Part shown: positions 19,412-61,391 of the stretch, piece by piece
Layout: each line of letters begins with the position of its first letter
Position numbering within the stretch: position 1 is the stretch's first letter
IMG/VR virus record: IMGVR_UViG_3300044464_000108
Span: 28,034 to 92,033 of that record
Length of the DNA stretch: 64,000 nt
Direction: 5' to 3' (one strand)
DNA from: a virus
Notes under the pieces: generated by a model
The model's database searches: none
Told to the model about the DNA's origin: nothing
Seen by the model: the letters and a program-made list of their open reading frames with translations, nothing else
Translations under genes and position numbers: made by a program

Positions 19412-19813
19412 ATGGATGACTACGAGGACTTGCCGAACACGAACGGGAGCAAGCTCGATCGAATCCTGTCAAAGCTCGATGACGCGCGCGAAGGTCGTGG
19501 CGCGATGAACGAGAAGCTCGACGATATCAGCCGCGACCTCGCGAGCCATCGAGCCGAGTTCGCCAAGCACGACGGTGAGGATCGCGAATTCCGCAAGGCG
19601 ACGGAACGCCGCGTTGACAAGCTCGAGCGTAAGAGCGAGACGGACATGCGCGAGCGCCTCAATCAAGAACGCGAAGCGGCCAAGGGTGTAACGGCCGACA
19701 AGAAGGATTCGTCGAAGCATTGGACGCGAACGATCGCAGCGGTTGCGATTGGGATCGTGGCTTCGGTGATCGCGGCGGTCATCACGGCAATCGTGACAGG
19801 ACACGTGAAGTAG
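19412..19813 (+). CDS. Coiled-coil protein with C-terminal membrane segment (holin-like)
   Basis: A 133-residue protein: a long charged coiled coil (residues 10-100, with SKLDDAREGRGAMNEKLDDI) and a single C-terminal transmembrane helix (about 108-130, AAVAIGIVASVIAAVITAIV). The layout resembles XhlA-type holin partners and other phage lysis proteins that anchor in the inner membrane. It lies before a second membrane protein and the amidase, so a lysis role is likely. Confidence 0.65.
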   Translation: MDDYEDLPNTNGSKLDRILSKLDDAREGRGAMNEKLDDISRDLASHRAEFAKHDGEDREFRKATERRVDKLERKSETDMRERLNQEREAAKGVTADKKDSSKHWTRTIAAVAIGIVASVIAAVITAIVTGHVK

Positions 19814-19819
19814 TAAGCT
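19814..19819 (+). promoter_or_regulatory. Hexamer TAAGCT, 8 bases before 19828 start
   Basis: TAAGCT-N8-ATG at the junction of the two membrane-protein genes. Confidence 0.4.
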
Positions 19820-19827
19820 CGCCTCCT

Positions 19828-20130
19828 ATGGTGGAGCTCCTACTCAAGAATCCCGCGCTCGTGACCTTTCTTTGGGCGACGGTGCTTTGGCCCGTCGGTT
19901 CGGGAATCGTCAACTTGATCTTCGATCGGTTCATCCCGAATACGGACGCCGGTTGGGACCTTTGGTTCGCGTCCAACCCCGGGCGTGCAGCGCTCGCGAA
20001 GTTGCTCCGGCAATGGGGGGTAAACCTCCCCGGCGGCTTCCGAACCATCCGCGCCTTCTTCTCGGGCCCTGCCCCTAAATTCCCGGCAAAAACGGAAGAG
20101 CCGGTTAAAGACCCTCCCAAGCCCGTTTAA
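19828..20130 (+). CDS. Small membrane protein, possible holin
   Basis: A 100-residue protein with one clear hydrophobic span (residues about 9-31, ALVTFLWATVLWPVGSGIVNLIF) and a basic, proline-rich tail (FPAKTEEPVKDPPKPV). ATG 19828 lies 14 bases after the preceding stop and 8 after TAAGCT. Position between a coiled-coil membrane protein and the amidase makes it a holin or holin-partner candidate. No holin family signature is visible. Confidence 0.6.
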   Translation: MVELLLKNPALVTFLWATVLWPVGSGIVNLIFDRFIPNTDAGWDLWFASNPGRAALAKLLRQWGVNLPGGFRTIRAFFSGPAPKFPAKTEEPVKDPPKPV

Positions 20131-20285
20131 GACGTCTTTGGGTTTCCAACACCCTCCCGGGTGATCTGACCCGTGCGGACTTCGTAAAGGTCAACGTCGA
20201 CAGACTGAGATGGGGTTTCACTTCCAGGATGCGGACAGGATCCCACACCCGAGTCATTCCAGAAGAGTCAAAGGTCTAGCTCATC

Positions 20286-20305
20286 TCGGAAGATCGATCT
20301 TCCGA
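20286..20305. repeat. Dispersed 20-bp palindrome, copy 4
   Basis: Perfect 20-mer in the 213-base gap before the amidase, with AGGGA on the right. The rest of that gap shows no gene. Confidence 0.9.
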
Positions 20306-20330
20306 AGGGATTCCAATCCGAGCGACCTGT

Positions 20331-20336
20331 TACCGT
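20331..20336 (+). promoter_or_regulatory. Hexamer TACCGT, 7 bases before the amidase start
   Basis: TACCGT-N7-ATG (20344). The gap upstream gives the lysin an apparently separate promoter. Confidence 0.5.
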
Positions 20337-20343
20337 TTGGGAC

Positions 20344-21675
20344 ATGCGTGCTTCCGATTACATCGAGCAGCTTCCCGAACAAGCCGGACCCGAGCGGGAA
20401 CGGAAGATCCTCGAATGGGCAATCAAGGGGCAGCTCCGCCCGATCGAATGGGCCCAAGTGCGGTCAGGGCGCGCGGTGTTTCAAGTGTCCGCCGACGGGC
20501 TCAAGGTCGGCGATGAGAACGATTCCGTTCGATTGAACGCCTGCCACGCGACGGCGCAGCAGCTCGCCGACATCCTTGGTGTGAGGCTTCCGACGACGAA
20601 GATTGAAGACCTCGCTTGGGCTCAAGCGCCGCTCAGGATCAAGCCGCAGATCCAAACGCCGGACGCGGCGATGAGCAACACGAGTCGCATGGTGCAGCAC
20701 AGCCGGGCGATCGATGCGATTCAGGCGTCGATCCAATCAATGCCCGAAAGCCAGAAGCAGTTTCTGCGAACCGCCGGCAAGGTTTGGGCGCTGACGAATC
20801 GACTCGAAGGCAACCCCGGGCGAGCCGCAAACTACGGTTGGCACGATCGCGGTGCTCCGAACGGCAAGTGTTGGCAACCGCTCGGACTCGCGCACAACCT
20901 CCGGCACGTCGACTATTCGCAAAACCTCTTTTTCGTACACCCGCTCGTCGACATCGAAGGGGTGAACTACGGCTACGAAGAAGTCCTAACGACTCCCGCG
21001 TTCGCTCAATACGCGAGCGATGAAGGCGTGCTTCGGATCACGCGACATCCCGGCGTGAGTCCGGACCATGGCGACATCCTGCATACGCTTCTCCCGCCGC
21101 CCTTGCTTGGGTGCGAGGGGCCCGCCGAAGACCCGGGGGTTATCCCGTTCGTGCAGGCGTTTCACTACCGCAAGGCGGATCGCAAGGACGTGCGCGTGCT
21201 CGTCGTGCACGACACCGAGACCCCGCAAACTGTCACAAGCGCCGAAGTCATTGCCGCGACGTTCGCAAGCAAAGCTTCGCCCATGGCTTCCCCGACGTAC
21301 GCCGTCGATGTGGATTCGTGCGTGCAGATGGTGCGCGACGAAGACGTGGCTTTCCACGTCGGAGCTCCCGCAAACGATTGGAGCGTCGGGATCGAGCATG
21401 CCGGCTATGCGCGATACTCCGCGGAGGATTGGGGGAGCATCTACTCGAGAGCGATGCTCCGTCGGTCCGCTGGACTTGCGGCTCGCATCTGCCGCAAGTG
21501 GGGGATCCCGCCGGTGTTCCTAACGGCCGCCCAACTCCGAGATCCTTCGGCGCGCGGCATCACGACGCACAAGCAGATCAGCGATGCGTTTCACGGGTCG
21601 AACCATTGGGATCCCGGTCCGGGCTTCCCGATCCTTTGGTACGTGAACGCGGTCGCTTGCGCTCTCGCGGCGTAG
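20344..21675 (+). CDS. Endolysin: N-acetylmuramoyl-L-alanine amidase
   Basis: A 443-residue lysin. The C-terminal 160 residues (about 285-443) form an Amidase_2/PGRP-type zinc amidase: VVHDTE (first His, about 290), the MASPTYAVDVD strand, VAFHVGAP, NDWSVGIEHAGY, and HWDPGPGF holding the final His. It cuts the bond between muramic acid and L-alanine in peptidoglycan. The N-terminal 280 residues are not a known cell-wall binding domain by eye and may be a host-specific targeting domain. It follows two membrane proteins in the lysis set. Confidence 0.85.
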   Translation: MRASDYIEQLPEQAGPERERKILEWAIKGQLRPIEWAQVRSGRAVFQVSADGLKVGDENDSVRLNACHATAQQLADILGVRLPTTKIEDLAWAQAPLRIKPQIQTPDAAMSNTSRMVQHSRAIDAIQASIQSMPESQKQFLRTAGKVWALTNRLEGNPGRAANYGWHDRGAPNGKCWQPLGLAHNLRHVDYSQNLFFVHPLVDIEGVNYGYEEVLTTPAFAQYASDEGVLRITRHPGVSPDHGDILHTLLPPPLLGCEGPAEDPGVIPFVQAFHYRKADRKDVRVLVVHDTETPQTVTSAEVIAATFASKASPMASPTYAVDVDSCVQMVRDEDVAFHVGAPANDWSVGIEHAGYARYSAEDWGSIYSRAMLRRSAGLAARICRKWGIPPVFLTAAQLRDPSARGITTHKQISDAFHGSNHWDPGPGFPILWYVNAVACALAA

Positions 21676-23630: not shown

Positions 23631-25340
23631 ATGCAAGAGACCTATATCGATGCTGCCGTTTGCAGCATCCAAGAATCCCCGACGAACCCGCGCAAACATT
23701 ACGACCCGGCGAAGATGACCGAGCTCATCGCGAGCGTGAAAGAGCACGGCATCATCACACCCGTTGTCGCGCGCTACGTGCGCGGAAGCACAGATATGCT
23801 CGAGCTCGTCTTCGGGCATCGACGACTTCGTGCCGCTCGCGCAGCGAAGCTCGATCACATCCCGACCATCATCCGGGAGATGACCGACAAGGCCGTTCTC
23901 GAAGCGCAGCTCGTCGAGAACAGCCAACGCGAGGACGTGCACCCGCTCGAAGAGGCGGAAGGGTATCGGCAGCTCAAAGAGGTGCACGACTACACGATCG
24001 AAGATATCGCGCTCAAGGTCGGAAAAGACGCGAGCTACGTCTATTCGCGAATCAAATTGCTCGGTCTCTCCGACCTCGGCAAGCAAGCTTTCTTTGACGG
24101 GAAGATCAATGCATCGGTCGCGCTTCTCGTCGCGCGGATGCCGAGCTTCGAGCTTCAAGACAAGGCGCTGAAAGACATCGTGGGCGAAGGCGACGACGAG
24201 CCGATGAACGTGCAAGAGGCGCGGCGTTTTATTACCGCGCACTTCATGCTTCGGCTTGTGGACGCTCCCTTTCGAAAGGACGATCCAACCCTTGTCGAAG
24301 CGGCCGGCGCTTGCACGAAGTGTCCGAAGCGCACGGGCAATCAGAAGGAACTGTTTGCTGACGTCGAAGCGAAGGACACGTGCACCGACCCGAAGTGCTT
24401 CGAGTTGAAGCGGGGCGCGCATTGGGAGCGTGAGAAGGCGAAGGCAAAGCAGGAAGGCCGAAAGGTGCTTTCACCCGTCGAGACGAAACGACTCTTTCCC
24501 TACAACAACGGCTTGATGCCTCATAACTCCCCGTATGTGGCGCTCGACGAGCGCCCGATCGGCGAAGAGGCTGACAAGCCGTGGAAAGACATTCTCGGTA
24601 AGGACACCCCAAAGAGCGTGCTCGTGCTCGACCCGCTCGGCAACCCGCGCAACCTTGTTCTCAAGGCTGACGTGCTCGCAACCGAGAAGGTGCCCGAGCA
24701 CATCCTTGACAGCGGAGCTCTGTCGACGGTCGTGCCGACGACACGACAGCAACGCGCGAAGGAGCGCGAACGGCTCGAGCAGGTGCAGACGATGAACGAT
24801 GAGTCCATCGCCGATCTCATGAGTGCGATCGGCGGTCGGGGCATTCAGCTCGAGGGCTTCAAGATGCTCTTGAGTTCAATCCTTGAGAGCTCGCATTGGG
24901 CGAGCGTGCTTCGCGACATCACGCGGCGTCGAGGGCTCACGACGTCGAAGGATCTCATGCCTCGGGATGCCGTGCGCGAGTACATCGAGCGGATGACCAC
25001 GATCGAGGAATGCTTTGGGTTGCTTGTCGAAGCGACGGTCTTGCATGACTTGACCGGGGGTGTACCGCTGCAGAGCGTCGAGCTCATCGAAGGGTTTCGA
25101 AAGGTTTACAAGAACGAGGCTTTCGGTGTCGTGGGAACCCCGCCGAAGGCATCGAAGAAGAAGTCCCCCAAAGAGCTTTTTGCATGCGGCACGGTGCTTC
25201 CCAAGGCCGTCAAGACGGTCAAGATTCTTCTGTCCAAAGTCGCCGCTAAGCCGCCCAAGGCGAAAGCCAAAGCAAAGAAGAAGGCGAAGCCTGCATCGCC
25301 CAAGGGCAAGGCCTCAAAAGGCAAACCGAAGAAGCCTTAG
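23631..25340 (+). CDS. ParB-like DNA-binding protein
   Basis: A 569-residue protein with a classic ParB/Spo0J N-terminal domain: SPTNPRKHYDPAKMTELIASV (residues about 15-35), FGHRRLRAAR (60-69) and ENSQREDVHPLEEAEGY (about 97-113), then a helix-turn-helix (IEDIALKVGKDASYVYSRI). A four-Cys zinc site follows (CTKCPKRTG ... CTDPKCFE, about 226-264). The C-terminus is a Lys/Ala/Pro-rich basic tail (500-569). ParB proteins bind parS-like sites and, in the presence of CTP, slide on DNA. Possible roles are genome partition, packaging or gene control. A GGGAGG site precedes ATG 23631. Confidence 0.8.
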   Translation: MQETYIDAAVCSIQESPTNPRKHYDPAKMTELIASVKEHGIITPVVARYVRGSTDMLELVFGHRRLRAARAAKLDHIPTIIREMTDKAVLEAQLVENSQREDVHPLEEAEGYRQLKEVHDYTIEDIALKVGKDASYVYSRIKLLGLSDLGKQAFFDGKINASVALLVARMPSFELQDKALKDIVGEGDDEPMNVQEARRFITAHFMLRLVDAPFRKDDPTLVEAAGACTKCPKRTGNQKELFADVEAKDTCTDPKCFELKRGAHWEREKAKAKQEGRKVLSPVETKRLFPYNNGLMPHNSPYVALDERPIGEEADKPWKDILGKDTPKSVLVLDPLGNPRNLVLKADVLATEKVPEHILDSGALSTVVPTTRQQRAKERERLEQVQTMNDESIADLMSAIGGRGIQLEGFKMLLSSILESSHWASVLRDITRRRGLTTSKDLMPRDAVREYIERMTTIEECFGLLVEATVLHDLTGGVPLQSVELIEGFRKVYKNEAFGVVGTPPKASKKKSPKELFACGTVLPKAVKTVKILLSKVAAKPPKAKAKAKKKAKPASPKGKASKGKPKKP

Positions 25341-41386: not shown

Positions 41387-41394
41387 TGAGCCTT

Positions 41395-41406
41395 CGCGTC
41401 ATCATC
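41395..41406 (+). promoter_or_regulatory. CGCGTCATCATC element before the SbcD-like gene
   Basis: CATCAT exactly 6 bases before ATG 41412. Confidence 0.6.
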
Positions 41407-41411
41407 CCTGC

Positions 41412-42152
41412 ATGAAGCTACTAGTCACGAGTGATTGGCATCTTGATTGGGCAACGGCAGGCGTCGAGCGGTACAGCGACCTTACGATGCATGTCGAGCA
41501 AACGGTGCAGGTCGCCAAGGAAGAGAAGGTCGACCTTTACCTCTTCCTTGGCGACCTCACAGATCCCGAGCCGGTGCGCTCGCATCTATCAACGGCGTTC
41601 GTCGCATCGGTTGCGCAACGGCTCGCTTCGGCGGACATCATGAGCCGTTGGCTCGTCGGCAACCATGATGTGATCGAGGATGGTCACGGAGTCTCAACCC
41701 TCGGAGCCATCAAGGCGGCGGGCCCGTGGCGGCAGAAAGCCGAGATGGTGCGCGTATATTCGGCACCCACGCTCGAAGACTTCGACCATAACGTCTCTCT
41801 GCTTGCGCTTCCCTTCACACCGAGGTCGCACACCTACGACCCCGCGGAAGTCGTGAAAGCCTTCGCAAAGGATATTGATCCTGCCGCGCACGTCATTGTC
41901 GCGGGGCACCTGAACATTGCCGGCATCGAACCGGGGTCGGAAACCGAGGACATGCCTCGCGGTCGCGACGTCATGTTTCCACTTGCCGCGTGCAAAGAGC
42001 TCTTCAAAGCGGAGCGCTCGACGCTCTTCAACGGGCATTACCATCGAGCCCAACTTTTCGAAGGGATCCACATCCCCGGCTCGCTTGACCGCCTGACCTT
42101 CGGCGAAGCGAAGAACGAGCCGGGCTTTCTCGTCGTCGAGGTGTTCGCGTGA
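41412..42152 (+). CDS. SbcD/gp47-like metallophosphoesterase
   Basis: A 246-residue calcineurin-type phosphoesterase: SDWHLD (residues 6-11), LFLGDLTDP (about 46-54), VGNHD (about 83-87), VIVAGHLN and NGHYHRA (about 209-215) give the five metal-binding motifs. With the SbcC-like ATPase encoded two genes on, it would form a nuclease that processes DNA ends for recombination (T4 gp46/47, SbcCD). It is shorter than SbcD, lacking most of the capping domain. Its stop overlaps the next start by 4 bases. Confidence 0.85.
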   Translation: MKLLVTSDWHLDWATAGVERYSDLTMHVEQTVQVAKEEKVDLYLFLGDLTDPEPVRSHLSTAFVASVAQRLASADIMSRWLVGNHDVIEDGHGVSTLGAIKAAGPWRQKAEMVRVYSAPTLEDFDHNVSLLALPFTPRSHTYDPAEVVKAFAKDIDPAAHVIVAGHLNIAGIEPGSETEDMPRGRDVMFPLAACKELFKAERSTLFNGHYHRAQLFEGIHIPGSLDRLTFGEAKNEPGFLVVEVFA

Positions 42153-45337: not shown

Positions 45338-46170
45338 ACCACGACATTATCGCTCCGCAGCGTTGCAGCACAGATCGCTACACGATGATTCACGGCGAGT
45401 GCATTGCGGAGCTCGTCAAGATGCGAGCGGCTTCGGTTGCTGCCGTGTTCGCCGACCCGCCGTATTCATCCGGCGGGCAGTACCGAGGGGACCGCAGCAA
45501 GCCCGTCACGACGAAGTACTTCAAGCATGGGGGCGAAGGGCCGAGCTTTACGGGGGACAACCGCGACCAACGGTCCTTTCTCATGTGGGCCAAGCTTTGG
45601 CTCGAAGAATGTCTTCGGGTCTCGGAAGACGGAGCACCGATCGGGATCTTTGCGGACTGGCGGCAGGTGCCCATCATGACGGACGCGCTGCAGATCGCCG
45701 GGTGGATGTGGCGGGGGATCGTGCCGTGGGACAAAGAGAACGCGCGCCCGATGCCGGGACGCTTCTCGGCGCAATGCGAGTTTATCCTGTGGGGCTCGAA
45801 GGGGGCGATGCCGCTCCGTCACGAGCTCGGGTATCAGCCGGGGATCTTCCGCGGGAAGCTCTTACAGCAAGAGCGCTTTCACATCACGGGCAAGCCTTCG
45901 AGCCTCATGCAAGAGCTCGTCAAGGTTGTGCCGAAGGATGGCATCGTGCTCGACCCCTTCGCGGGCAGCGGGTCAACGGGTGTCGGAGCGCTTCGCGAGG
46001 GACGTCGCTTCCTCGGCATTGAGCTCGACGCCGAGTACTACGCGCGAGCGTGCGATCGGTTGAACCGGTGGAAGTGCGACGACGATCAATATCTCCGGCT
46101 CGTCAGCAAGCTGACGAAGAAGCCGCTCCAACTCGGAAGGAAGAAGACCCGTGAAACCCAAGAGTCCTAA
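45334..46170 (+). CDS. Site-specific DNA methyltransferase (N6-adenine or N4-cytosine)
   Basis: A 278-residue methylase with motif IV DPPY (residues 41-44, VFADPPYSSGG) before motif I DPFAGSGSTG (about 207-216), the beta-type order shared by N6-adenine and N4-cytosine enzymes. ATG 45334 overlaps the resolvase stop. The target cannot be read from the sequence. It lies directly before a ParB-domain gene; methylase plus ParB-like domain is a known phage pairing. It may protect the phage genome from restriction. It is independent of the Dam-like gene at 10 kb. Confidence 0.85.
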   Translation: MNHDIIAPQRCSTDRYTMIHGECIAELVKMRAASVAAVFADPPYSSGGQYRGDRSKPVTTKYFKHGGEGPSFTGDNRDQRSFLMWAKLWLEECLRVSEDGAPIGIFADWRQVPIMTDALQIAGWMWRGIVPWDKENARPMPGRFSAQCEFILWGSKGAMPLRHELGYQPGIFRGKLLQQERFHITGKPSSLMQELVKVVPKDGIVLDPFAGSGSTGVGALREGRRFLGIELDAEYYARACDRLNRWKCDDDQYLRLVSKLTKKPLQLGRKKTRETQES

Positions 46171-46837
46171 GAAGCGTTCCCTTCACATCGTGTCGGCAAA
46201 GACCCCCATCCCGGCGGGGCTTATCCTTCCGGACCCCGAGCAGGTGAAGATCTCAGAGATCAACTTCGCGACGTACAACCCGCGTGTGATGAGCGCGAAG
46301 AAGATGAAGCAACTCAAGGCTTCGCTTCTCAAGCACGGGCTCGTCTTGAACCTCGTCATCCAAAAGAAGAACCGAACGCTCATCGGCGGTCATCAACGGG
46401 TGACAGCGATCCGTGAGATCTGTGCTGAGCGGGGTTGGATCGTGCCCGACCTCGCATGGGCGACGGTGCTCGACATCGACGATGCGAGCGCGAAGATGCT
46501 GAACGTCTCGCTCAATAAGATCGACGGCGACTTCGATCCTTACAAGCTTGGCGAGCTCTTCAAGTCGCTTCCGAAGCTCGAGCTCGACGGCATTCTCTCA
46601 ATGGGCTTCGAGCCTGAGGGTGTTGAAGAGCTCATCAAGTTCATCGATCCAGTCGACGACAGCACCGGCAAAGAGGTGAAGACCTTCGCGAAGGCAGCGA
46701 CTCTCTCTGTTGAGTTCGCGACGGCAGAACAACGCGATCAAGCAAAGGCTCTGCTCATCGAGCATTCCGACAAGAAGGGCAAGAAGCCGGGCGTCTTCCT
46801 CTTGAGCCTCTTGAAGACGCATCGAGCGGTTGCTTGA
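46151..46837 (+). CDS. ParB-domain nuclease-like protein
   Basis: A 228-residue protein with a ParB/Srx-fold N-terminal domain (residues about 33-105: ISEINFATYNPRVMSAKKMK, then LIGGHQRVTAIREI). The GGHQR box matches ParB-like nuclease domains that accompany phage methylases. The C-terminal half is variable with FEPEGVEELIKFI. It overlaps the methylase by 20 bases and may act with it (inference). It is a second, unrelated ParB-type protein besides the one at 23.6 kb. Confidence 0.75.
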   Translation: MKPKSPKKRSLHIVSAKTPIPAGLILPDPEQVKISEINFATYNPRVMSAKKMKQLKASLLKHGLVLNLVIQKKNRTLIGGHQRVTAIREICAERGWIVPDLAWATVLDIDDASAKMLNVSLNKIDGDFDPYKLGELFKSLPKLELDGILSMGFEPEGVEELIKFIDPVDDSTGKEVKTFAKAATLSVEFATAEQRDQAKALLIEHSDKKGKKPGVFLLSLLKTHRAVA

Positions 46838-53737: not shown

Positions 53738-54337
53738 ATGAAGAAGCTTAGCCCCCTTGCTACGTGGGCAACGGGTGCCGCTGTCGAAGAGCTCCCCGTT
53801 CCTGACGTCGTGCAGCACACGGGTTACACGTGCGGCCCGAGCGCTCTGCTTGCCGTGTGCACCTACTTCGGGATCCCGACTTCGGAGGAAGAGCTAGCCG
53901 AGTTCGCTGACACGACTCCCGCCGGCACGGGACCCGATGAGCTTGCCAAGGCGGCTCGCGCGGTGGGGCTCGGCGCGGAGGTGCGCGAGGACATGTCGAC
54001 CGACGACCTCAAGGCAGCTCTCGACGATGGACACCCGGTGCTCGTCGCTCTGCAGGCGTGGCACCCTCAGGAGGGGGCTACAGAGCACGACTACGGGGAC
54101 GAGTGGGGTGACGGCCATTGGGTTGTCGCAACGGCCGTAAAAGGCAACGTCGCCCTATTCGAGGATCCCAGCGTGCGCGGGCGCGTCCTGCTCACGTTGA
54201 ACGAGCTCGACGAACGGTGGCATGACATCGATTCGGGCAAAGAGCGGCAGGGTATCGGCATCGTGTTCACGAGCGATATCCACGAAGAACCGGCTCCCGA
54301 GGCTCGACCGCTCGACGACATTGAGCCGATGGGATGA
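53738..54337 (+). CDS. C39-like cysteine peptidase
   Basis: A 199-residue protein of the peptidase C39-like fold: GYTCGPSALLAVCTYFG (Cys about residue 32), PDELAKAARAVGLGAEV, GHPVLVALQAW, then GDGHWVVA (His about 127) and FEDPSVRG (Asp about 142) give the catalytic triad of papain-like C39 proteases. Relatives cleave leader peptides at double-glycine sites; in phages a small C39-like protein could mature a virion protein or act on a host peptide. A late-type TAGCGT hexamer lies before it, which hints at a virion role. Confidence 0.75.
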   Translation: MKKLSPLATWATGAAVEELPVPDVVQHTGYTCGPSALLAVCTYFGIPTSEEELAEFADTTPAGTGPDELAKAARAVGLGAEVREDMSTDDLKAALDDGHPVLVALQAWHPQEGATEHDYGDEWGDGHWVVATAVKGNVALFEDPSVRGRVLLTLNELDERWHDIDSGKERQGIGIVFTSDIHEEPAPEARPLDDIEPMG

Positions 54338-54429: not shown

Positions 54430-54449
54430 TCGGAAGATCGATCTTCCGA
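54430..54449. repeat. Dispersed 20-bp palindrome, copy 9
   Basis: Perfect 20-mer in the 222-base stretch between the peptidase and the secreted protein. An ATG-started frame from 54334 runs through it (SEDRSSE) but continues over the start of the next gene and is not convincing. Confidence 0.9.
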
Positions 54450-54559: not shown

Positions 54560-56626
54560 ATGAGATTGTTACGAATCGTTCTTGGATTGATGCTCTGCAC
54601 GATCGTCTCGCCGGCATCGGCAACGGTCTTCGCTCGCGATACGTTCAACCTTGCCGTACCGGGGGGCTCGCCGGGCTATTCCGTCGGCAAGATTCACGGA
54701 CAGGGGTTTGGTACCGGATGGTCGGCCGACACCCAAGTGCAAGGGAGCCTTTGCACATCGAGCTCGAACACCGCGACCGGCGGTGGACGAAGCGGTTTCA
54801 ATTGGGTGGACGGCTATTCCGGAAGCTCGACGACCGCTGACGTCATTGCGCCCAACGTCTTCACCTTCCCCGGGCTCGTGCTCGGAACGGGGATGCTCTC
54901 TTCAAAGAAGAGCTCGAGCGATATCCGAGCCTTTCGCACCTTCGACGTGACGCAAGCGGCGCTCGACGCCTTCCGAAAGGGATCGAGCAGCATTGGCAAT
55001 GGGACGATCTTTCTTGGGGTGATGACCCGACTCAACACGCCGGGGACCGCGACCGGACATTGCGGGGTTCACCTTTACGAAACTCTCCCCGGTCCCTTGA
55101 GCTCGTGCCAAGCCGGCAAGGCTGGCGAACGCTTGTACTTCGGGGATCGCAACTTTAAGGGAGCAGTTGCATCCACCGTTTACAACGTTGGGCGCACAAC
55201 TCAGGGCGGCAATGGGGCAGCCATCTTCGACACGATGACGCAGTTCGACAGCACGGCTCACCTTGAGGTGCTTCGCATTCGCTTCAACGTCTCGAGTGCG
55301 TGCGATGCAGGCGTCAATGGTCCGGCGAACTGCACCAAGTGTCCGATCGATCCGGCGACGAATCTCCCTTCGCTCTGCAATGACGAGATCACCTACTGGC
55401 TTGATCCTCCCGCGGGCCCCCTCCCTCCGACGCTTGCCACGCAAGGTCCGCATCCTGTGCAGGACTTCGCCTTCGATTCGGTTTCGATTGGATCCGGGCA
55501 AGGCAGCGGCGGGGGGCAAGAAGGATGCGACTTCGGCGCGCTTACGCTCACCGATAGCTATGCCGATCTCTTCGAGCTTCCGGCAAACGATTCGTGCTTG
55601 AACGCCGAAGCGATCGATCTCGAGCCGGATCTTCCGGTCGATGTCTATGGCACGACCATCGGCGCGCTCGACGACTACCAAACGTTTTGCGCTGATATGA
55701 CCCCTGCAGCCGATAGCCCCGACGTCGTGTATCAGCTCAACGTTGCAGCCCCTGGCACCCTTTACATGTCTTTGAACGACGGGAGCGGAGCGCACCCTTT
55801 TAATGGTGCGCTCGAGCTTCGGACCTCGGCATGCGCTGACGAGCACAACGGGCAGAACATGCGGACGCTTTGCTACAACCAACACAGCGTAGGTGCCGGC
55901 GAAGGTGATGCGATCGACATCGCAGCGGGAACCTTTTGGGTCGTCGTCGACAGTATTGGAGCACCTGGGGACTTTTCTCTTTCCTTTGACCTCGCGCCTG
56001 CTCTTTGCGGGGACGGCGTGGTCAATGAGAGCGTCGGCGAGACGTGCGAACCGACAAGCTCGAACGATCCGGGATGCTTCGGGATCGATGACGAATTCCC
56101 GTGCAAGGTGAAGCCGCAACCCATGCAGCTCGAAGCGTGCCCGGGGTTGCCCGAGGTCATTGCCGCGGGAGAGTCTTTGGTGTGGGGGCCCTTCACAACC
56201 ATGGGTGCGCTTGATGACACGATCGGTTCATGCCTCGGAGGCAATCGGCACGGCTCCGATCAAGTCATTCAAGTTACCCCGAGTGCGAGCGGCTCTCTCA
56301 CGCTGACGATCGGCGTCGATCCAGCGACCGGTGTTGCTTACTGTCTCGAGCCTTCGACGTGTTGGAACTCCGGCATTGGTTGTCCCGCGGAATGCTGGGC
56401 CGGTGCGATCTACGTGCGAACCACGTGCGCCGATGCAGCAACACAGACAGCATGTGATTGGGCTTATTCATCGCCGTGGGATGGCCCAACCCCGACGTTC
56501 TTCGTCGAGCACGTCACAATTCCGGTGACGGCCGGCGTTCCCTACTTCGTGTTCGTCGATGGTATCTCGAGCTCTTCACTTCCTCATTCGGCGGGCCCGT
56601 ACTTTGTGGAGGCGAATTTACAATGA
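54560..56626 (+). CDS. Large secreted protein with a host-like Cys-rich motif
   Basis: A 688-residue exported protein: a typical signal peptide (residues 1-21, MRLLRIVLGLMLCTIVSPASA) is followed by a beta-rich body with repeated extracellular-looking modules (about 345-475, NDSCLNAEAIDLEPDLPVDV, then FWVVVDSIGAPGDFSLSF, and similar at 560-680). Near residue 482 is CGDGVVNESVGETCEP, the DUF4215-like motif typical of secreted myxobacterial proteins. The final domain repeats a TVPAGTYYV-type strand pattern (VTAGVPYFVFVDGISS). It is a very unusual phage product; a likely origin is host DNA. It could alter the host surface or adsorption. Confidence 0.75.
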   Translation: MRLLRIVLGLMLCTIVSPASATVFARDTFNLAVPGGSPGYSVGKIHGQGFGTGWSADTQVQGSLCTSSSNTATGGGRSGFNWVDGYSGSSTTADVIAPNVFTFPGLVLGTGMLSSKKSSSDIRAFRTFDVTQAALDAFRKGSSSIGNGTIFLGVMTRLNTPGTATGHCGVHLYETLPGPLSSCQAGKAGERLYFGDRNFKGAVASTVYNVGRTTQGGNGAAIFDTMTQFDSTAHLEVLRIRFNVSSACDAGVNGPANCTKCPIDPATNLPSLCNDEITYWLDPPAGPLPPTLATQGPHPVQDFAFDSVSIGSGQGSGGGQEGCDFGALTLTDSYADLFELPANDSCLNAEAIDLEPDLPVDVYGTTIGALDDYQTFCADMTPAADSPDVVYQLNVAAPGTLYMSLNDGSGAHPFNGALELRTSACADEHNGQNMRTLCYNQHSVGAGEGDAIDIAAGTFWVVVDSIGAPGDFSLSFDLAPALCGDGVVNESVGETCEPTSSNDPGCFGIDDEFPCKVKPQPMQLEACPGLPEVIAAGESLVWGPFTTMGALDDTIGSCLGGNRHGSDQVIQVTPSASGSLTLTIGVDPATGVAYCLEPSTCWNSGIGCPAECWAGAIYVRTTCADAATQTACDWAYSSPWDGPTPTFFVEHVTIPVTAGVPYFVFVDGISSSSLPHSAGPYFVEANLQ

Positions 56627-56853
56627 AGAAGACCATCTCGATTGTGCTGTTAGTCCTTGTTGGATGTGGTGGACCTGTCCCTGTTCTTGAACAGGGTGCT
56701 AAGAAAGTACTGTCGTCCGACATACCCCCCGATGAACAGCTCACGCTCGATATACCTCCCGACGAGCAGCTCAAAGACATCCCGCCTGACGAGCAGCTCA
56801 CGGGTGACGCTGGAACGCGGAAACCTCCCGTGTGCGTCAACTGCTTCCAGTGA
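56623..56853 (+). CDS. Small lipoprotein with three IPPDEQL repeats
   Basis: A 76-residue lipoprotein: a signal with lipobox LVGC (Cys 15) and a mature region with three tandem copies of DIPPDEQL, separated by one or two residues (residues about 33-58), then a short Cys-containing tail (CVNCFQ). It starts at ATG 56623, overlapping the secreted protein's stop by 4 bases, so the two are co-expressed. Surface lipoproteins in phages often act in superinfection exclusion; here that is only a possibility. Confidence 0.7.
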   Translation: MKKTISIVLLVLVGCGGPVPVLEQGAKKVLSSDIPPDEQLTLDIPPDEQLKDIPPDEQLTGDAGTRKPPVCVNCFQ

Positions 56854-56876
56854 ACTGACTCTCGCCGCCTAGGCTT

Positions 56877-56888
56877 CGCGTCATGATC
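56877..56888 (+). promoter_or_regulatory. CGCGTCATGATC element before 56894 gene
   Basis: CATGAT exactly 6 bases before ATG 56894. Confidence 0.6.
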
Positions 56889-56893
56889 CCAGC

Positions 56894-57097
56894 ATGGCGA
56901 TCCACGACGCTCCGACATCCCAAAACATCGAACAACTAACCATCCTCCGCGTTTCGAGCGTGCTCGGACAAGTGAGTGAGAACACCCTCAAACGGTTGGT
57001 TCAATCGCACATCACGCCGAAAGGCTTGCTCTTGCTTGGTCGTGCCGCGTCGCACGAGCTCGACCGCCGCTTTGACCTCGAGAAAGGAACACGATGA
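56894..57097 (+). CDS. Small unknown helical protein
   Basis: A 67-residue protein with two helices (QNIEQLTILRVSSVLGQVSE; KGLLLLGRAASHELDRRF). It starts 6 bases after CATGAT. The next gene overlaps by 4 bases. No function is assigned. Confidence 0.6.
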   Translation: MAIHDAPTSQNIEQLTILRVSSVLGQVSENTLKRLVQSHITPKGLLLLGRAASHELDRRFDLEKGTR

Positions 57098-57444
57098 TCC
57101 ATCCGAATGCTCGCCCGATGAATGGGCTCTTCACGCGCCTTGCGTCCGCACTCGCGGTCCCTTGGCAAACGAGCTACACGGCTCCCGCCGCCCGCACCCT
57201 CGACGCTCTCGTTCACGTCGCGAAAGGCTACGACGTCTTTTGGACGCCCGTCGGCTTCGACGAGAAGGACGACTCACGAGAGCCGGCATCCGTTTGCTAC
57301 CGCATCTTCAAGGTCATCAAAGGCGAGCGCATCACGAGCCACGCCGTCGAAGTCGATCACACCTTGCCAACTTGGATCTACCGAGCCGAGCACAAGCTTC
57401 GCGAGAACCTTCGAGCTCTTCTCTTCTTCGGGTTCGTCCGATGA
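57094..57444 (+). CDS. Unknown protein
   Basis: A 116-residue protein; AGAAAGGAACACG lies before ATG 57094, which overlaps the previous stop. The alpha/beta sequence includes VWTPVGFDE and ITSHAVEVDHTLP. No family recognised. It is upstream of the terminase, co-translated with the next small gene (ATGA overlap). Confidence 0.55.
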   Translation: MIHPNARPMNGLFTRLASALAVPWQTSYTAPAARTLDALVHVAKGYDVFWTPVGFDEKDDSREPASVCYRIFKVIKGERITSHAVEVDHTLPTWIYRAEHKLRENLRALLFFGFVR

Positions 57445-57734
57445 TCACGCCGAAGGAATGCGTTTCCCCGACGCCGCAAGATCTCGAGATGGCGAGCATG
57501 CTCGAACATGAGATCGACGACTGTTTGCGAAAAGCCGCCGGTGCAGATGCGGTTTACAACGTGACATCCGCCATTACTGATCGAGCCATTCGAATCGTGA
57601 TCGATCGATACCGAGCCGCTGGTTGGTGTGTCGAGCTCATCACGATCCGCCCCCCATCCGAAGATCGATACGAGCGACACCCGAAGCGAACCCTCCGCTT
57701 TGAAGTCCCCTCGACGACCGCGTTCGATCGATAA
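57441..57734 (+). CDS. Unknown small protein before terminase
   Basis: A 97-residue protein from ATG 57441. A helical body (MASMLEHEIDDCLRKAAGAD) is followed by an alpha/beta segment (RAIRIVIDRYRAAGWCVELI) that resembles a small regulatory or structural phage protein. The terminase start follows after about 135 bases, a gap with no other gene. Confidence 0.55.
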   Translation: MITPKECVSPTPQDLEMASMLEHEIDDCLRKAAGADAVYNVTSAITDRAIRIVIDRYRAAGWCVELITIRPPSEDRYERHPKRTLRFEVPSTTAFDR

Positions 57735-57868
57735 GCCCCCAACGTTTGACCCGACCCCCATCCCTCCGTCATCCTCTCTCGTAGGAAGGCCGTACCAGCG
57801 CAGCAACCCCAGGCTTGGGAGAGCCATCAAGGGGCCGCTTCGCTCAAGGGTCCGAGACGAGATCCCCC

Positions 57869-59689
57869 ATGACAACCCAGTCCCCTCTTTCACCCCAACG
57901 CACCCTCACGCCTGCCCAACTCCAAGAGCGCTCCCTACTCCTCCAACGCTCTCTACTCCGACGTGCTTACGCGGCTCGACTCGACCCCGCTGACTTTCTC
58001 GAGTTCGTCGTCCGCGAAGAGACCACACGACAACGGCTCAAGTGTGCCCCGCACCAACGCGTTGTCCTCGACTTTGTAATGTCACACGCGCGGTCCGTTG
58101 TGAGGCTTCCAGTAGGCTTTTCGAAGACGTATCTCATGGCCACGCTCAGCATGTTCAACCTCGGACTCGATTGCACGGAGCGTGGTGCAATCATCTCGAG
58201 CACGGCCGAGCAAGCCTCGAAACCCCTCGGCATGGTGCGCGACTACATCGCGAACAAGGACAACCAACACCCCGAGCTCCGTCTCGTGTTCCCCGAGCTG
58301 CAGCAGTCCCCACACGAGGACGATCCGTGGACGCAAACAAAGATCGTCGTCAAGCGCCCGTCAGGCATTCGCGATCCTTCCCTCAAGGCCGTCGGAGTCG
58401 GGGGAGCTCTCCCCGGCTCGCGTCTGCGCTGGATCAACGTGGACGACATCCTCGACGAGGAGAACACCCGAAACCACGACGGGCGCTCGCGCGTAAACGG
58501 ATGGTTCATGAGCACCGTGCTCTCGCGCGCCGATGCGAAGGACTCCCGCCTATGCGTGACGAACACGCCTTGGCATCGTGAAGACCTCACGTACAAACTC
58601 GAAGAGGCCGGGTTTCCCACGCTCGAGATGAACATCGAAGGGCAGGTCTCGATCACCAACACCGATTGGGACACCGACGAGGTTCGCCCGAGCTACGCGA
58701 TACGGGGCTCCGTGTGCCGTCTCGCTTCGCACGACTCCGAGAGCTACGGCGCACCCGAGGCGATTCGACTACGCGCTGACGACCCCCTGGAAGAGAAGGG
58801 CGAGCACATCCTGTTCGAGGGCAACGCTTCGCTAGGCCGACCCGTTGAGCCGTTCGATGTTGCGGAGTCGATCCCGCTTTGGCCCGAGCGCTACGACCGC
58901 GAAGTCATCGACAAGAAGAAGGTCGATTACAAGAACAGCATGCACGAATACAACCGCCTCTTCATGCTCCGCACACGGAGCGAAGAAGGCGCGCGCGTGC
59001 AGAAGGAATGGATCGAGCGCGCGAAGCTGCTCGGTCGCACGCTCGGCATGTATCACTTCGTTTCCGAGTACCTCGGACCGAACCTCACCGTGACGGGTGT
59101 CGACCTCGCGGTATCGCGCAAGAAGGGATCGGACTTCACGTGCTTCGTCACCGTCGAGCTCGTGCCGAACATCACGTTCGACTTGCGCGAGGATGGCGTC
59201 GTTCGAAGCATCACGCTTCGAAACGCTCGCCGGATTCTCGAGGTTGATATCGGGCGGTGGAAGGGGCGCACGATCGTCGACAAGTTGATCGACAAGTGCA
59301 AACGCTACAACTCAATCGCGCGGGTCGAGACGAACGCGGCGCAAGACTTCCTCAGGCAATGGACGATCGATGAGGACACGAGCGTGCCGGTCAAGGCGCA
59401 CAACACGGGGAGGAACAAGATCGATCCTCGATATGGTGTCGAGAGCGTGTTCGTCGAGCTCGAGAACGGCGCTTGGATCTTTCCCTCGGACATCGGCGGT
59501 GCTGCACCCGAAGCGCTGCAAGTCGTGATCGACGATTGCCTTTACTACAACCCGACGGCGCATACGGGCGATGGGCTAATGGCAACGTGGCTCGCTCGAG
59601 AACAGATACGAGCAATCACGGGCGACTCGAGGGACTACGACGGGGCGGCCCAACCTTCGAGCCTCGGCGCGTCTCTTACGGCTCGCTAG
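57869..59689 (+). CDS. Terminase large subunit
   Basis: A 606-residue protein (from ATG 57869; an in-frame ATG at 57815 would add 18). The ATPase part has a divergent Walker A, LPVGFSKTYLMA (residues about 80-91), and Walker B with INVDDILDEEN (about 190-200). The nuclease domain has the RNaseH-like acidic residues GVDLAVSRKKGSD (about 410-422), RVETNAAQDFLRQW, and HTGDGLMATW near the end. It cuts and pumps DNA into the prohead. It is the only packaging gene certain in the window; portal and capsid genes are not found downstream to the window end. Confidence 0.85.
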   Translation: MTTQSPLSPQRTLTPAQLQERSLLLQRSLLRRAYAARLDPADFLEFVVREETTRQRLKCAPHQRVVLDFVMSHARSVVRLPVGFSKTYLMATLSMFNLGLDCTERGAIISSTAEQASKPLGMVRDYIANKDNQHPELRLVFPELQQSPHEDDPWTQTKIVVKRPSGIRDPSLKAVGVGGALPGSRLRWINVDDILDEENTRNHDGRSRVNGWFMSTVLSRADAKDSRLCVTNTPWHREDLTYKLEEAGFPTLEMNIEGQVSITNTDWDTDEVRPSYAIRGSVCRLASHDSESYGAPEAIRLRADDPLEEKGEHILFEGNASLGRPVEPFDVAESIPLWPERYDREVIDKKKVDYKNSMHEYNRLFMLRTRSEEGARVQKEWIERAKLLGRTLGMYHFVSEYLGPNLTVTGVDLAVSRKKGSDFTCFVTVELVPNITFDLREDGVVRSITLRNARRILEVDIGRWKGRTIVDKLIDKCKRYNSIARVETNAAQDFLRQWTIDEDTSVPVKAHNTGRNKIDPRYGVESVFVELENGAWIFPSDIGGAAPEALQVVIDDCLYYNPTAHTGDGLMATWLAREQIRAITGDSRDYDGAAQPSSLGASLTAR

Positions 59690-59693
59690 GCTT

Positions 59694-59705
59694 CGCGTCA
59701 TCATC
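59694..59705 (+). promoter_or_regulatory. CGCGTCATCATC element before a micro-gene
   Basis: CATCAT exactly 6 bases before ATG 59711. Confidence 0.6.
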
Positions 59706-59710
59706 CGGAC

Positions 59711-59782
59711 ATGAGCGAGCAAGAGTCCGAGGAAGAACGAAGTGCGGCGATGGATCTCACGTCCCTTGTCGACGTGTCGTGA
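59711..59782 (+). CDS. Possible 23-residue micro-gene
   Basis: ATG 59711 to TGA 59782 encodes MSEQESEEERSAAMDLTSLV and DVS. Support is the precise promoter spacing and the overlap of its stop with the next GTG start (4-base overlap), a pattern used by real gene pairs here. It may be a translated leader that couples the following gene, rather than a functional peptide. Confidence 0.45.
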   Translation: MSEQESEEERSAAMDLTSLVDVS

Positions 59783-60252
59783 AGACCACGATCGATCTTA
59801 CTGACGACGCATCCCCGTGCGAGCCGATGGCGATCGGTGATCCGAGCAGCCTTTGCGTTGATGGCGATGACGTCGTGATCCAGCTTCGCGAAGTCGAGCT
59901 TCGGATGACAACCCCTCAATTCGTCACCTTCGCGGAAGCCGTGAGCGAGTTTCTCTTCCGCGACTTCAGAGGGGAACTCGACATCAACGATCCGAATCGC
60001 TGTCCCGAGCGTGAGCATCACGAGCTTCGCGAGCTCTATCGAAAGATCTTGAGCGGTGTAGTGGGTGGCGAATTCGTACCGGATGCACTCCGATGGTCAA
60101 TCATGTCCGAACTCGTGAGGCGGCGGATTGACCCCGAGCTTTGGATCGATCTCAAAGAACAACTTCGTCGAGCGCACGAAGAGATCGAATCAAAGGGATC
60201 CAAGGGATCCAAACCACGTCGAACACGAACGAAGAGCGGAGGAAACCCATGA
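59779..60252 (+). CDS. Unknown protein downstream of terminase
   Basis: A 157-residue protein from GTG 59779, overlapping the micro-gene's stop. It contains strand-rich DDVVIQLREVELRMTT and a helical middle (CPEREHHELRELYRKIL) with a basic, Lys-rich C-terminus (ESKGSKGSKPRRTRTKSGG). It overlaps the lipoprotein start by 4 bases. No function assigned. Confidence 0.55.
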   Translation: MKTTIDLTDDASPCEPMAIGDPSSLCVDGDDVVIQLREVELRMTTPQFVTFAEAVSEFLFRDFRGELDINDPNRCPEREHHELRELYRKILSGVVGGEFVPDALRWSIMSELVRRRIDPELWIDLKEQLRRAHEEIESKGSKGSKPRRTRTKSGGNP

Positions 60253-60893
60253 AGATCTTTCTCGCATTGATGGGCATGTGCATCGGTTGCAGCGCGGAAA
60301 GCTTAGGAACGTCGGCCGCCGAATCGAGCAACGGACTTCGCTTCGTCGATGTCTCCGAGCTCGACGTAAACGAGGGATGGATCAACGTGTGTCCGCCGTC
60401 CGTCTCTGTCCCGAAGATGCGCGCGACCTTCCCGGCATCCACCGCGCAACTCGCCGACCTTCGGTTCATCTATCGAGGCCCGACGGCGGACAGTATCCCG
60501 CTCGCGTCGGGCGAGTTTCGAACTCAGCTCGGGCTGAAGCTCAGAGCGCAAAACGAATGCAACATCGTTTATGTGATGTGGCGTTTCGCTCCGACTCCGG
60601 GGATCGTCGTGCAGGTGAAAAGCAATCCCGGCATGAGCACGAGTGCGGCTTGTGGGAACGGGGGCTACACGACGATCAAGTCATCGAGCTCGATGCCGGT
60701 CCCTTCCGTCGCAGTCGATTCGTCTCACGCCATTCGCGCGACCCTCGACGCTCGAGCTCTCACCGTCGAAGTGGATGGGGCGACGGTTTGGCAAGGTGAC
60801 GTTGGACCCGCGGCGATGCTCTTTGACGGCCCCATCGGCATCCGCTCCGACGATGCTGCCTTCGAGTTCGGGCTGCTCGCCGTGGCACCCTGA
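60249..60893 (+). CDS. Lipoprotein with lectin-like fold
   Basis: A 214-residue protein with a lipobox (CIGC, Cys 14; MKIFLALMGMCIGCSAES). The mature part is beta-rich and ends with a run of strands (AIRATLDARALTVEVDGATV, then FDGPIGIRSDD) similar to concanavalin-like jelly-roll carbohydrate-binding proteins. It would sit in the host envelope, the third such exported protein in the window. ATG 60249 overlaps the preceding stop by 4 bases. Likely host-derived or involved in surface modification (inference). Confidence 0.65.
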   Translation: MKIFLALMGMCIGCSAESLGTSAAESSNGLRFVDVSELDVNEGWINVCPPSVSVPKMRATFPASTAQLADLRFIYRGPTADSIPLASGEFRTQLGLKLRAQNECNIVYVMWRFAPTPGIVVQVKSNPGMSTSAACGNGGYTTIKSSSSMPVPSVAVDSSHAIRATLDARALTVEVDGATVWQGDVGPAAMLFDGPIGIRSDDAAFEFGLLAVAP

Positions 60894-60939
60894 ATCTTTT
60901 TCGACAATGAGCTAGATCCTTTTCTCGATCTGAGGCGCT

Positions 60940-60951
60940 CGCGTCATCATG
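60940..60951 (+). promoter_or_regulatory. CGCGTCATCATG element before 60957 gene
   Basis: CATCAT exactly 6 bases before ATG 60957. Confidence 0.6.
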
Positions 60952-60956
60952 GGGTC

Positions 60957-61391
60957 ATGACGAAGCTCGCCGACAATCTCGCCGATCACATTCGCACCTA
61001 CGAAGAGGACCGAGCCAAGCGCTACGAGGGACGGCAGTACACCCCCGACGTCGGGCTCTCGTTCACCGTGCATCTCGAGCAGGGTAAGGTGCTCCGCATC
61101 GTTCGCACCGATGGCATTCAAGCCGAGGCGACGACCGACAAGCTCGAAGAGCAGCTTGCAAACGGAACGCTCATCCTGACCGAGCACCTTGTCGGGATCA
61201 TGGCTCGCACGCTTGCAGGCATGCCGGGGCTCGATCGGGTCTCGCTTGAAGAACGATCGGTCATGGTCCGGCGGGAGCTCGCAAGGCAAGAGGCAAAGCA
61301 AATGACAATGCTCGCGATGATTGGACCCGTCGGATGCGAGCCGACGTTGATAACGGGGGTTCCGCCCGTCACTCGATGGGAAGACACGTGA
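60957..61391 (+). CDS. Unknown protein
   Basis: A 144-residue protein; the N-terminal part (residues 1-55) is helical and charged, and the middle forms strands (LSFTVHLEQGKVLRIVRTDG). A helical segment near the end (ERSVMVRRELARQEAKQMTMLAM) may dimerise. It starts directly after the CATCAT element. No function assigned. Confidence 0.55.
   Translation: MTKLADNLADHIRTYEEDRAKRYEGRQYTPDVGLSFTVHLEQGKVLRIVRTDGIQAEATTDKLEEQLANGTLILTEHLVGIMARTLAGMPGLDRVSLEERSVMVRRELARQEAKQMTMLAMIGPVGCEPTLITGVPPVTRWEDT

What the first reader, a model, noticed from the sequence alone, without database searches (positions are those of the whole stretch)
54560..60893. Three exported proteins of host style around the terminase
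A 688-residue secreted protein with a CGDGVVN...GETCEP motif, a lipoprotein with three IPPDEQL repeats and a second lipoprotein with a jelly-roll-like body all lie within 6.4 kb. Each is joined to its neighbour by 4-base overlaps, so they belong to the phage units. Phages rarely encode such surface proteins. They may change the host envelope, block superinfection or alter predation by the host.
Basis: partly seen in the sequence, partly recalled or inferred. Interest (0 to 1): 0.55.

Follow-up and report, generated by a model that had tools for sequence, protein, structure and literature searches.

The report
Phage-borne myxobacteria-like surface proteins
A virus that probably infects myxobacteria carries several proteins built for the bacterial surface, one of them a relative of a protein often encoded beside a bacterial polysaccharide synthase, which suggests that the virus remodels the surface of the cell it infects.

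Summary
The observation largely holds. Exported proteins A (688 aa) and B (76 aa) lie on one side of a real large-terminase gene and C (214 aa) on the other. A/B, and an upstream ORF/C, overlap by 4 bases; the other junctions are gaps. The 92-kb virus record encodes two more lipoprotein-like products outside the window.

C is the informative one. It has 9 clear relatives in 377 Myxococcota genomes (31-47% local identity) and none found in viral contigs, phage or plasmid records. In 6 of the 9 places it lies beside a NodC-like polysaccharide synthase, an inner-membrane coiled-coil protein and a weakly TolC-like protein; twice it is fused to the last. Its C-terminal part resembles DUF1080 (ConA-like jelly-roll) domains. 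A has a PPC-like domain with weak Myxococcota relatives and a CGDG motif found mainly there.

Best reading: host-derived exported cargo made during infection of a myxobacterium-like host; C probably binds, trims or competes at a surface polysaccharide. Export is well supported by sequence, host origin reasonably; the benefit (superinfection block, release, jamming of export) is inferred. No spanin arrangement was found for B. New variant of a known kind.

The parts
54430..54449 (.). Perfect 20-base palindrome TCGGAAGATCGATCTTCCGA, 110 bases upstream of A; one of 14 exact copies in the record
   Evidence: RNA hairpin z-score -3.0
54560..56626 (+). A: 688-aa secreted protein; signal sequence, N-terminal part of unknown family, PPC-like domain about 324-480, CGDG motif 483-498, weak second PPC-like copy about 545-681
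   Evidence: own codon-based caller preferred a start at 54590
56623..56853 (+). B: 76-aa lipoprotein with three IPPDEQL repeats, overlapping A by 4 bases
   Evidence: no supported relative
56871..56889 (+). Intergenic repeat AGGCTTCGCGTCATGATCC before the start codon at 56894, so a new unit may begin after B
57869..59689 (+). Terminase large subunit (ORF opens at 57815 with TTG; ATG at 57869)
   Evidence: phrog_38 E 8e-46
59688..59706 (+). Second copy of the intergenic repeat, ahead of the short gene chain that leads to C
59779..60252 (+). 157-aa ORF of unknown function, overlapping C by ATGA
60249..60893 (+). C: 214-aa lipoprotein-like exported protein; member of a Myxococcota family linked to a polysaccharide-synthase cluster; C-terminal part DUF1080/ConA-like

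Best explanation
A, B and C are exported proteins of host type carried by a probably virulent phage of a Myxococcota-like host. They are made in the infected cell and sent by the Sec (A) or lipoprotein (B, C) route to the envelope or outside. C is a phage copy of a family whose chromosomal members often sit beside, or are fused to, parts of a NodC/PgaC-like polysaccharide synthase and export cluster. C most likely binds, trims or competes at a surface polysaccharide. The phage most likely gains either a coat that no longer captures phage (infected cell or debris) or easier escape of progeny from the matrix. Shown by computation: genes, signal sequences, family and gene neighbourhood of C, phage context. 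Inferred: host, final location, glycan target, benefit.
For: Signal sequences above shuffled expectation. C: 9 of 377 Myxococcota genomes at E <= 1e-17, the same 9 at E <= 1e-59 with the profile; 2 of 246 genomes of a control phylum, both marginal. In 6 of 9 loci a GT2 synthase, an inner-membrane coiled-coil protein and an exported coiled-coil protein lie next to C, the synthase nearest NodC, E 6e-53 but below the model's cut-off; 2 of 9 are fused. C-terminal part related to PF06439 domains. A: 22 of 377 Myxococcota genomes at E <= 0.01, best 3e-8; motif mainly in Myxococcota titles.
Against: C itself passes no Pfam model. 3 of 9 relatives lack the synthase neighbours. Only 9 of 377 genomes have the family, so the host need not own the cluster. 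The TolC-like label is weak: 1 of 6 members, E 0.0037. The phage's terminase does not place the host. Other phyla than the one control were not searched. No activity or location was measured.
Confidence: 0.5

Rival explanations
1. Superinfection-exclusion lipoproteins in the manner of T5 Llp or T1 Cor: B and/or C bind an outer-membrane protein receptor and block further adsorption, with no glycan role.
For: Both carry lipoprotein signals; such lipoproteins are common in coliphages (passages of PMC9586334).
Against: Llp lies next to the receptor-binding protein gene in T5; here the tail/baseplate genes found lie at about 5-19 kb of the window, far from B and C. C's family is tied to a polysaccharide synthase.
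Confidence: 0.18
2. B is a lysis protein (outer-membrane spanin) and A and C are unrelated passengers.
For: B is a small proline-rich lipoprotein.
Against: No neighbour with an N-terminal membrane segment and coiled coil was seen; the endolysin with membrane proteins beside it lies at 19412-21675, 33 kb away; B has no PHROG match to a spanin.
Confidence: 0.1
3. A and C are virion proteins, for example displayed adhesins, whose N-termini only resemble signal sequences.
For: They lie next to the terminase; C's relatives are ConA-like, a fold also used on virions (recalled).
Against: The signal sequences exceed shuffled expectation; C's relatives carry signal sequences too; A is cysteine-rich, 25 Cys, which fits an oxidising compartment; the head and tail genes lie elsewhere.
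Confidence: 0.08
4. The genes serve the host cell while infected or carrying the phage (adhesion, predation, matrix), as auxiliary genes.
For: ConA-like auxiliary genes have been proposed to aid adhesion in Patescibacteriota phages (abstract and passages of PMC12911398).
Against: No tyrosine integrase in the record, so a long-lived carrier state is less likely; serine integrases were not searched.
Confidence: 0.1
5. Assembly chimera: host DNA joined to a phage contig.
For: The families are cellular and were not found in other viruses.
Against: The genes stand on both sides of the terminase, use the phage's overlaps and repeat elements, and have GC 0.55-0.61, like the record and below the 0.63-0.76 of the loci with C relatives. 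Further exported genes lie elsewhere in the record.
Confidence: 0.04

Closest known systems
DUF1080 / PF06439 (3-keto-disaccharide hydrolase) ConA-like domains, including the Thermogutta endo-xanthanase
   Same: C-terminal part of the C family aligns to them (96.7% over 55 columns); the five weakest profile hits all carry PF06439 there
   Different: C matches no Pfam model itself; its N-terminal part does not align; enzyme activity unknown; the phage protein is lipoprotein-like
Unnamed Myxococcota cluster: NodC-like GT2 synthase, inner-membrane coiled-coil protein, TolC-like protein, C protein
   Same: C is a full family member by sequence
   Different: No synthase or other partner of the cluster was recognised in the phage among the genes scanned; 3 of 9 chromosomal members also stand alone
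Phage superinfection-exclusion lipoproteins (T5 Llp, Cor)
   Same: Phage-encoded lipoproteins aimed at the envelope
   Different: Larger (C) or repetitive (B), not seen beside a receptor-binding protein gene; no sequence link sought or shown
Myxococcota secreted proteins with PPC (PF04151) and CGDG cysteine motifs
   Same: A's domain aligns to them; 2 of 6 scanned relatives hit PPC above its cut-off
   Different: A has its own domain order and passes no Pfam or NCBIfam cut-off

Membership tests
C-protein family of Myxococcota (defined here) | near full-length similarity with shared invariant residues, two Cys included | tested here: met
   31-47% local identity; Cys104 and Cys135 invariant in 8 of 8 rows
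C-protein family of Myxococcota (defined here) | neighbouring GT2 synthase cluster | tested here: not met
   met in 6 of 9 chromosomal loci; in the phage the neighbours of C are a 157-aa ORF and a 144-aa ORF without PHROG match or unscanned, so the cluster is absent there; 3 of 9 chromosomal members lack it too
PF06439 3-keto-disaccharide hydrolase (DUF1080) | Pfam score above the gathering cut-off | tested here: not met
   0 families for C at E <= 1
PF06439 3-keto-disaccharide hydrolase (DUF1080) | ConA-like jelly-roll fold | tested here: inconclusive
   profile link over 55 columns; structure model pLDDT 38
Polysaccharide hydrolase or lectin | glycan cleavage or binding | not testable with these tools
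   needs an assay
PPC domain PF04151 | Pfam score above cut-off in A | tested here: not met
   only relatives of A hit it
Myxococcus cysteine-rich repeat (name recalled) | NCBIfam or Pfam match in A | tested here: not met
   only the short pattern is shared
Llp/Cor superinfection-exclusion lipoproteins | lipoprotein signal | tested here: met
   for B and C, by a consensus rule
Llp/Cor superinfection-exclusion lipoproteins | blocks adsorption through an outer-membrane receptor | not testable with these tools
   needs an experiment; no phage relative of B or C found
Outer-membrane spanin (for B) | next to or inside an inner-membrane spanin gene | tested here: not met
   no such neighbour; lysis genes 33 kb away

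The most novel reading that the evidence does not exclude
The phage has captured the outermost piece of a myxobacterial synthase-dependent polysaccharide machine (GT2 synthase, inner-membrane coiled-coil protein, TolC-like protein, C) and uses it, perhaps with A and B, as a stand-in that jams or redirects export of the coat polysaccharide, closing the cell to other phages or freeing progeny from the matrix.
Probability: 0.15. Interest if true: 0.72.

Novelty: new variant of a known kind. Interest (0 to 1): 0.5.

Why it matters
Few myxobacterial phages have been described, and how they deal with the polysaccharide coat of these bacteria is little known (the review PMC6070905, passages, raises the question that exopolysaccharide may impede phage attachment). 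Here one phage carries at least five exported proteins, and one of them belongs to an unnamed family tied to a polysaccharide-synthase cluster; the paper searches listed no description of it. That makes a direct test possible: does a phage change the glycan coat of its host with a piece of the host's own export system? It also gives function-linked relatives to a protein that looked like an orphan.

Tried and rejected
Single-sequence scans for relatives of A, B, C and the terminase in viral contigs gave nothing; the C-family alignment found none there either. Phage tblastn for A and C: none at E <= 1. Plasmids: none for C. PDB by sequence: none for A or C; the C profile gave only one weak match, to CD4, at E 1. 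AlphaFold of mature C without an alignment: pLDDT 38, so no fold search was made. The second fold job was not used, because the relatives come from the genome search, which the fold tool does not list as an allowed source.

Spanin, virion and chimera readings were considered and ranked low (see rivals). Temperate lifestyle: no PF00589 integrase in the record, 14 of 14 control genomes rang; serine integrases were not searched. Host link through the terminase: 6 of 377 Myxococcota genomes at E <= 0.001, best 7e-19 at 30% identity, too weak to place the host. The palindrome was absent from the 9 genomes with C relatives. A FastTree of C and its 9 relatives is unresolved around the phage branch (supports 0.41-0.68); the IQ-TREE step failed. 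B in the same 9 genomes: one match at E 0.06, ignored. The outer-membrane efflux label rests on 1 of 6 members at E 0.0037, below Pfam's cut-off, and no PDB match at E <= 0.1. The inner-membrane protein has no convincing family. A paper search on phage lipoproteins in myxobacteria listed one unrelated paper.
Full report
Where it lies. The window is bases 28,034-92,033 of a 92,033-base virus record. The rest was read as two pieces. It is a tailed phage: terminase, major head protein and amidase endolysin, baseplate wedge, DNA polymerase and helicase. No tyrosine integrase was found with PF00589, while 14 of 14 control genomes rang, so it is probably virulent; serine integrases were not sought.

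The observation. A (54560-56626), B (56623-56853) and C (60249-60893) are as described, with the terminase (57869-59689) between B and C. A/B, and the ORF 59779-60252/C, overlap by ATGA. The other junctions are gaps, so 'each joined to its neighbour' is only half right. My own codon-based caller put A's start at 54590; I keep 54560, because a GGGGAG lies ahead of it and it gives the full signal sequence. B carries IPPDEQL at residues 34, 44 and 53. With one explicit lipoprotein rule 4 of 115 called genes match (B, C and two genes outside the window); shuffled N-termini give a mean of 0.08 and at most 2 in 1000 rounds. With a Sec rule 2 of 115 match (A and one of the former), mean 0.29, and 31 of 1000 rounds reach 2. 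The rules were written after seeing the proteins, so these figures flatter the result somewhat.

Protein C. Alone, C matches nothing in Pfam, PHROGs, NCBIfam, phages, plasmids or viral contigs, and its family alignment finds nothing in viral contigs. Against 377 genomes drawn from the phylum of a Paraliomyxa miuraensis genome (L005), 61 match at E <= 0.1, most of them weak, and 9 match at E <= 1e-17. With a profile of C and seven relatives the same 9 match at E <= 1e-59 and 3 more marginally. As a control, 2 of 246 genomes from the phylum of a genome titled Planctomycetota match, at E about 1e-3 over 47-55 positions. Local identities are 36-48% for eight relatives and 31% for the ninth. Two cysteines, Cys104 and Cys135, are invariant in the eight-row alignment, as are Asn105, Trp111, Lys124, Asn126, Asp176 and Asp201.

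Neighbours of C's relatives. In 6 of 9 loci tblastn finds the same three partners: a GT2 synthase, an inner-membrane coiled-coil protein of about 360 residues and an exported coiled-coil protein. The synthase of L144 is nearest NodC (E 6e-53) and PgaC (E 1.5e-35), both below those models' cut-offs, with strong Pfam GT2 matches. In L142, L144 and L147 the genes run in one direction; in L141, L143 and L145 the synthase is divergent. In L144 and L147 C is the C-terminal part of the exported protein. That protein resembles outer-membrane efflux proteins only weakly (1 of 6 members, E 0.0037), and the inner-membrane protein has no convincing family. L140, L146 and L148 show no such partners in 10.6-11 kb. 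I read this as a synthase-dependent polysaccharide cluster with C as an optional outer piece. The synthase is shown by profile; the path through the envelope is inferred.

Fold of C. The five weakest profile hits (three Myxococcota, two from the control phylum) match only the C-terminal part of C. All five hit PF06439, at E 8e-39, 1.5e-6, 1.7e-5, 3.4e-4 and 0.034; two of them pass its cut-off. An alignment of these five against the C family gives 96.7% over 55 columns. The set was chosen by its match to C, so this comparison is not independent. That alignment itself reaches LamG, lectin and glycosylhydrolase structures. One DUF1080 protein is a polysaccharide hydrolase with GH16-like structure (passages of PMC10881899). 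The jelly-roll guess is likely, not proven; the structure model without an alignment was useless.

Protein A. A has no family above cut-off. In 377 Myxococcota genomes 22 match at E <= 0.01, best 3e-8, most often over residues about 324-480; several relatives are proteins made of repeats of that domain. Of six relatives scanned, two hit PPC (PF04151) above its cut-off and one below. A profile of the Myxococcota copies finds a second, weak copy in A at about 545-681. Some low hits look like noise (L105, L115). The pattern CGDGVVNxxxGExC occurs in 96 stretches of genome contigs; of the 80 listed, 47 titles name Myxococcota taxa, 13 'Deltaproteobacteria', 12 other groups, 4 'proteobacterium' or 'Proteobacteria' and 4 only 'bacterium' (my count). 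The same pattern gives 0 in viral contigs, where this record itself may be left out.

Protein B and other exported genes. B has no supported relative. It looks like a small lipoprotein; no spanin arrangement is visible. Outside the window, L002:6575-7138 (187 aa, lipobox, cysteine-rich) has weak matches in 19 of 207 Myxococcota genomes (best 8e-5), and L003:12148-12465 (105 aa) also carries a lipobox.

Regulatory context. The palindrome TCGGAAGATCGATCTTCCGA occurs 14 times exactly in the record; 11 of 14 lie outside called genes, although 8.5% of positions are outside (P about 5e-10). Three of the five exported genes directly follow a copy, 13-110 bases on (P about 0.01, a test thought of afterwards). 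A second repeat, TCGCGTCATNATCC and variants, ends just before start codons at 41412, 56894 and 60957 and lies ahead of the short chain leading to C. So A-B and C seem to belong to separate phage units.

How it works. Most likely the proteins are made in the infected cell and exported, and C acts on or beside a surface polysaccharide, as its relatives' neighbours suggest. The benefit could be less re-adsorption, as with T5 Llp but by another route (passages of PMC9586334), or better release. A review of M. xanthus phages notes that exopolysaccharide may impede phage attachment (passage of PMC6070905). My estimates: export 0.85, host-type origin 0.75, glycan role of C 0.4, exclusion as the benefit 0.25.

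Novelty. ConA-like auxiliary genes have been reported in Patescibacteriota phages (abstract and passages of PMC12911398), and phage lipoproteins are well known. New here, as far as the searches go, are the family, its synthase link and the number of exported proteins in one probable myxobacterial phage. Paper searches: (listings); none of the listings described it.

Noticed in passing
window 7934, 10666, 14621, 20286, 22871, 30029, 37550, 48261, 54430, 63953; L002 6521; L003 1419, 6925, 12115: Perfect 20-base palindrome TCGGAAGATCGATCTTCCGA, 14 exact copies in 92 kb, 11 of 14 outside called genes, often 13-180 bases before a gene start; none in other viral contigs or in 9 Myxococcota genomes. 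Operator, processing hairpin or partition site are all open.
   Followed up: partly
window 41394-41415, 56876-56897, 59693-59714, 60939-60960: Second intergenic repeat TCGCGTCATCATCC...CATG that ends at start codons; a candidate phage promoter or leader.
   Followed up: partly
L002 6575-7138 and L003 12148-12465: Two more lipoprotein-like genes outside the window, each directly after a palindrome; the first has a cysteine-rich part with weak Myxococcota matches.
   Followed up: partly
window 53738-54337: C39-like papain-fold peptidase without an apparent signal sequence, just upstream of A's unit (Pfam E 3e-11); role unknown.
   Followed up: no
L140-L148: Myxococcota gene cluster of NodC-like synthase, inner-membrane coiled-coil protein, TolC-like protein and C family, apparently an undescribed polysaccharide system.
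   Followed up: partly
window 56001-59000: GC skew turns negative (about -0.11 to -0.13) from B to the terminase, against a positive or near-zero skew in the rest of the window.
   Followed up: no
window 23631-25340 and 46151-46837: Two proteins with ParB-like N-terminal sequence (by eye, no family search), possible binders of the palindrome.
   Followed up: no
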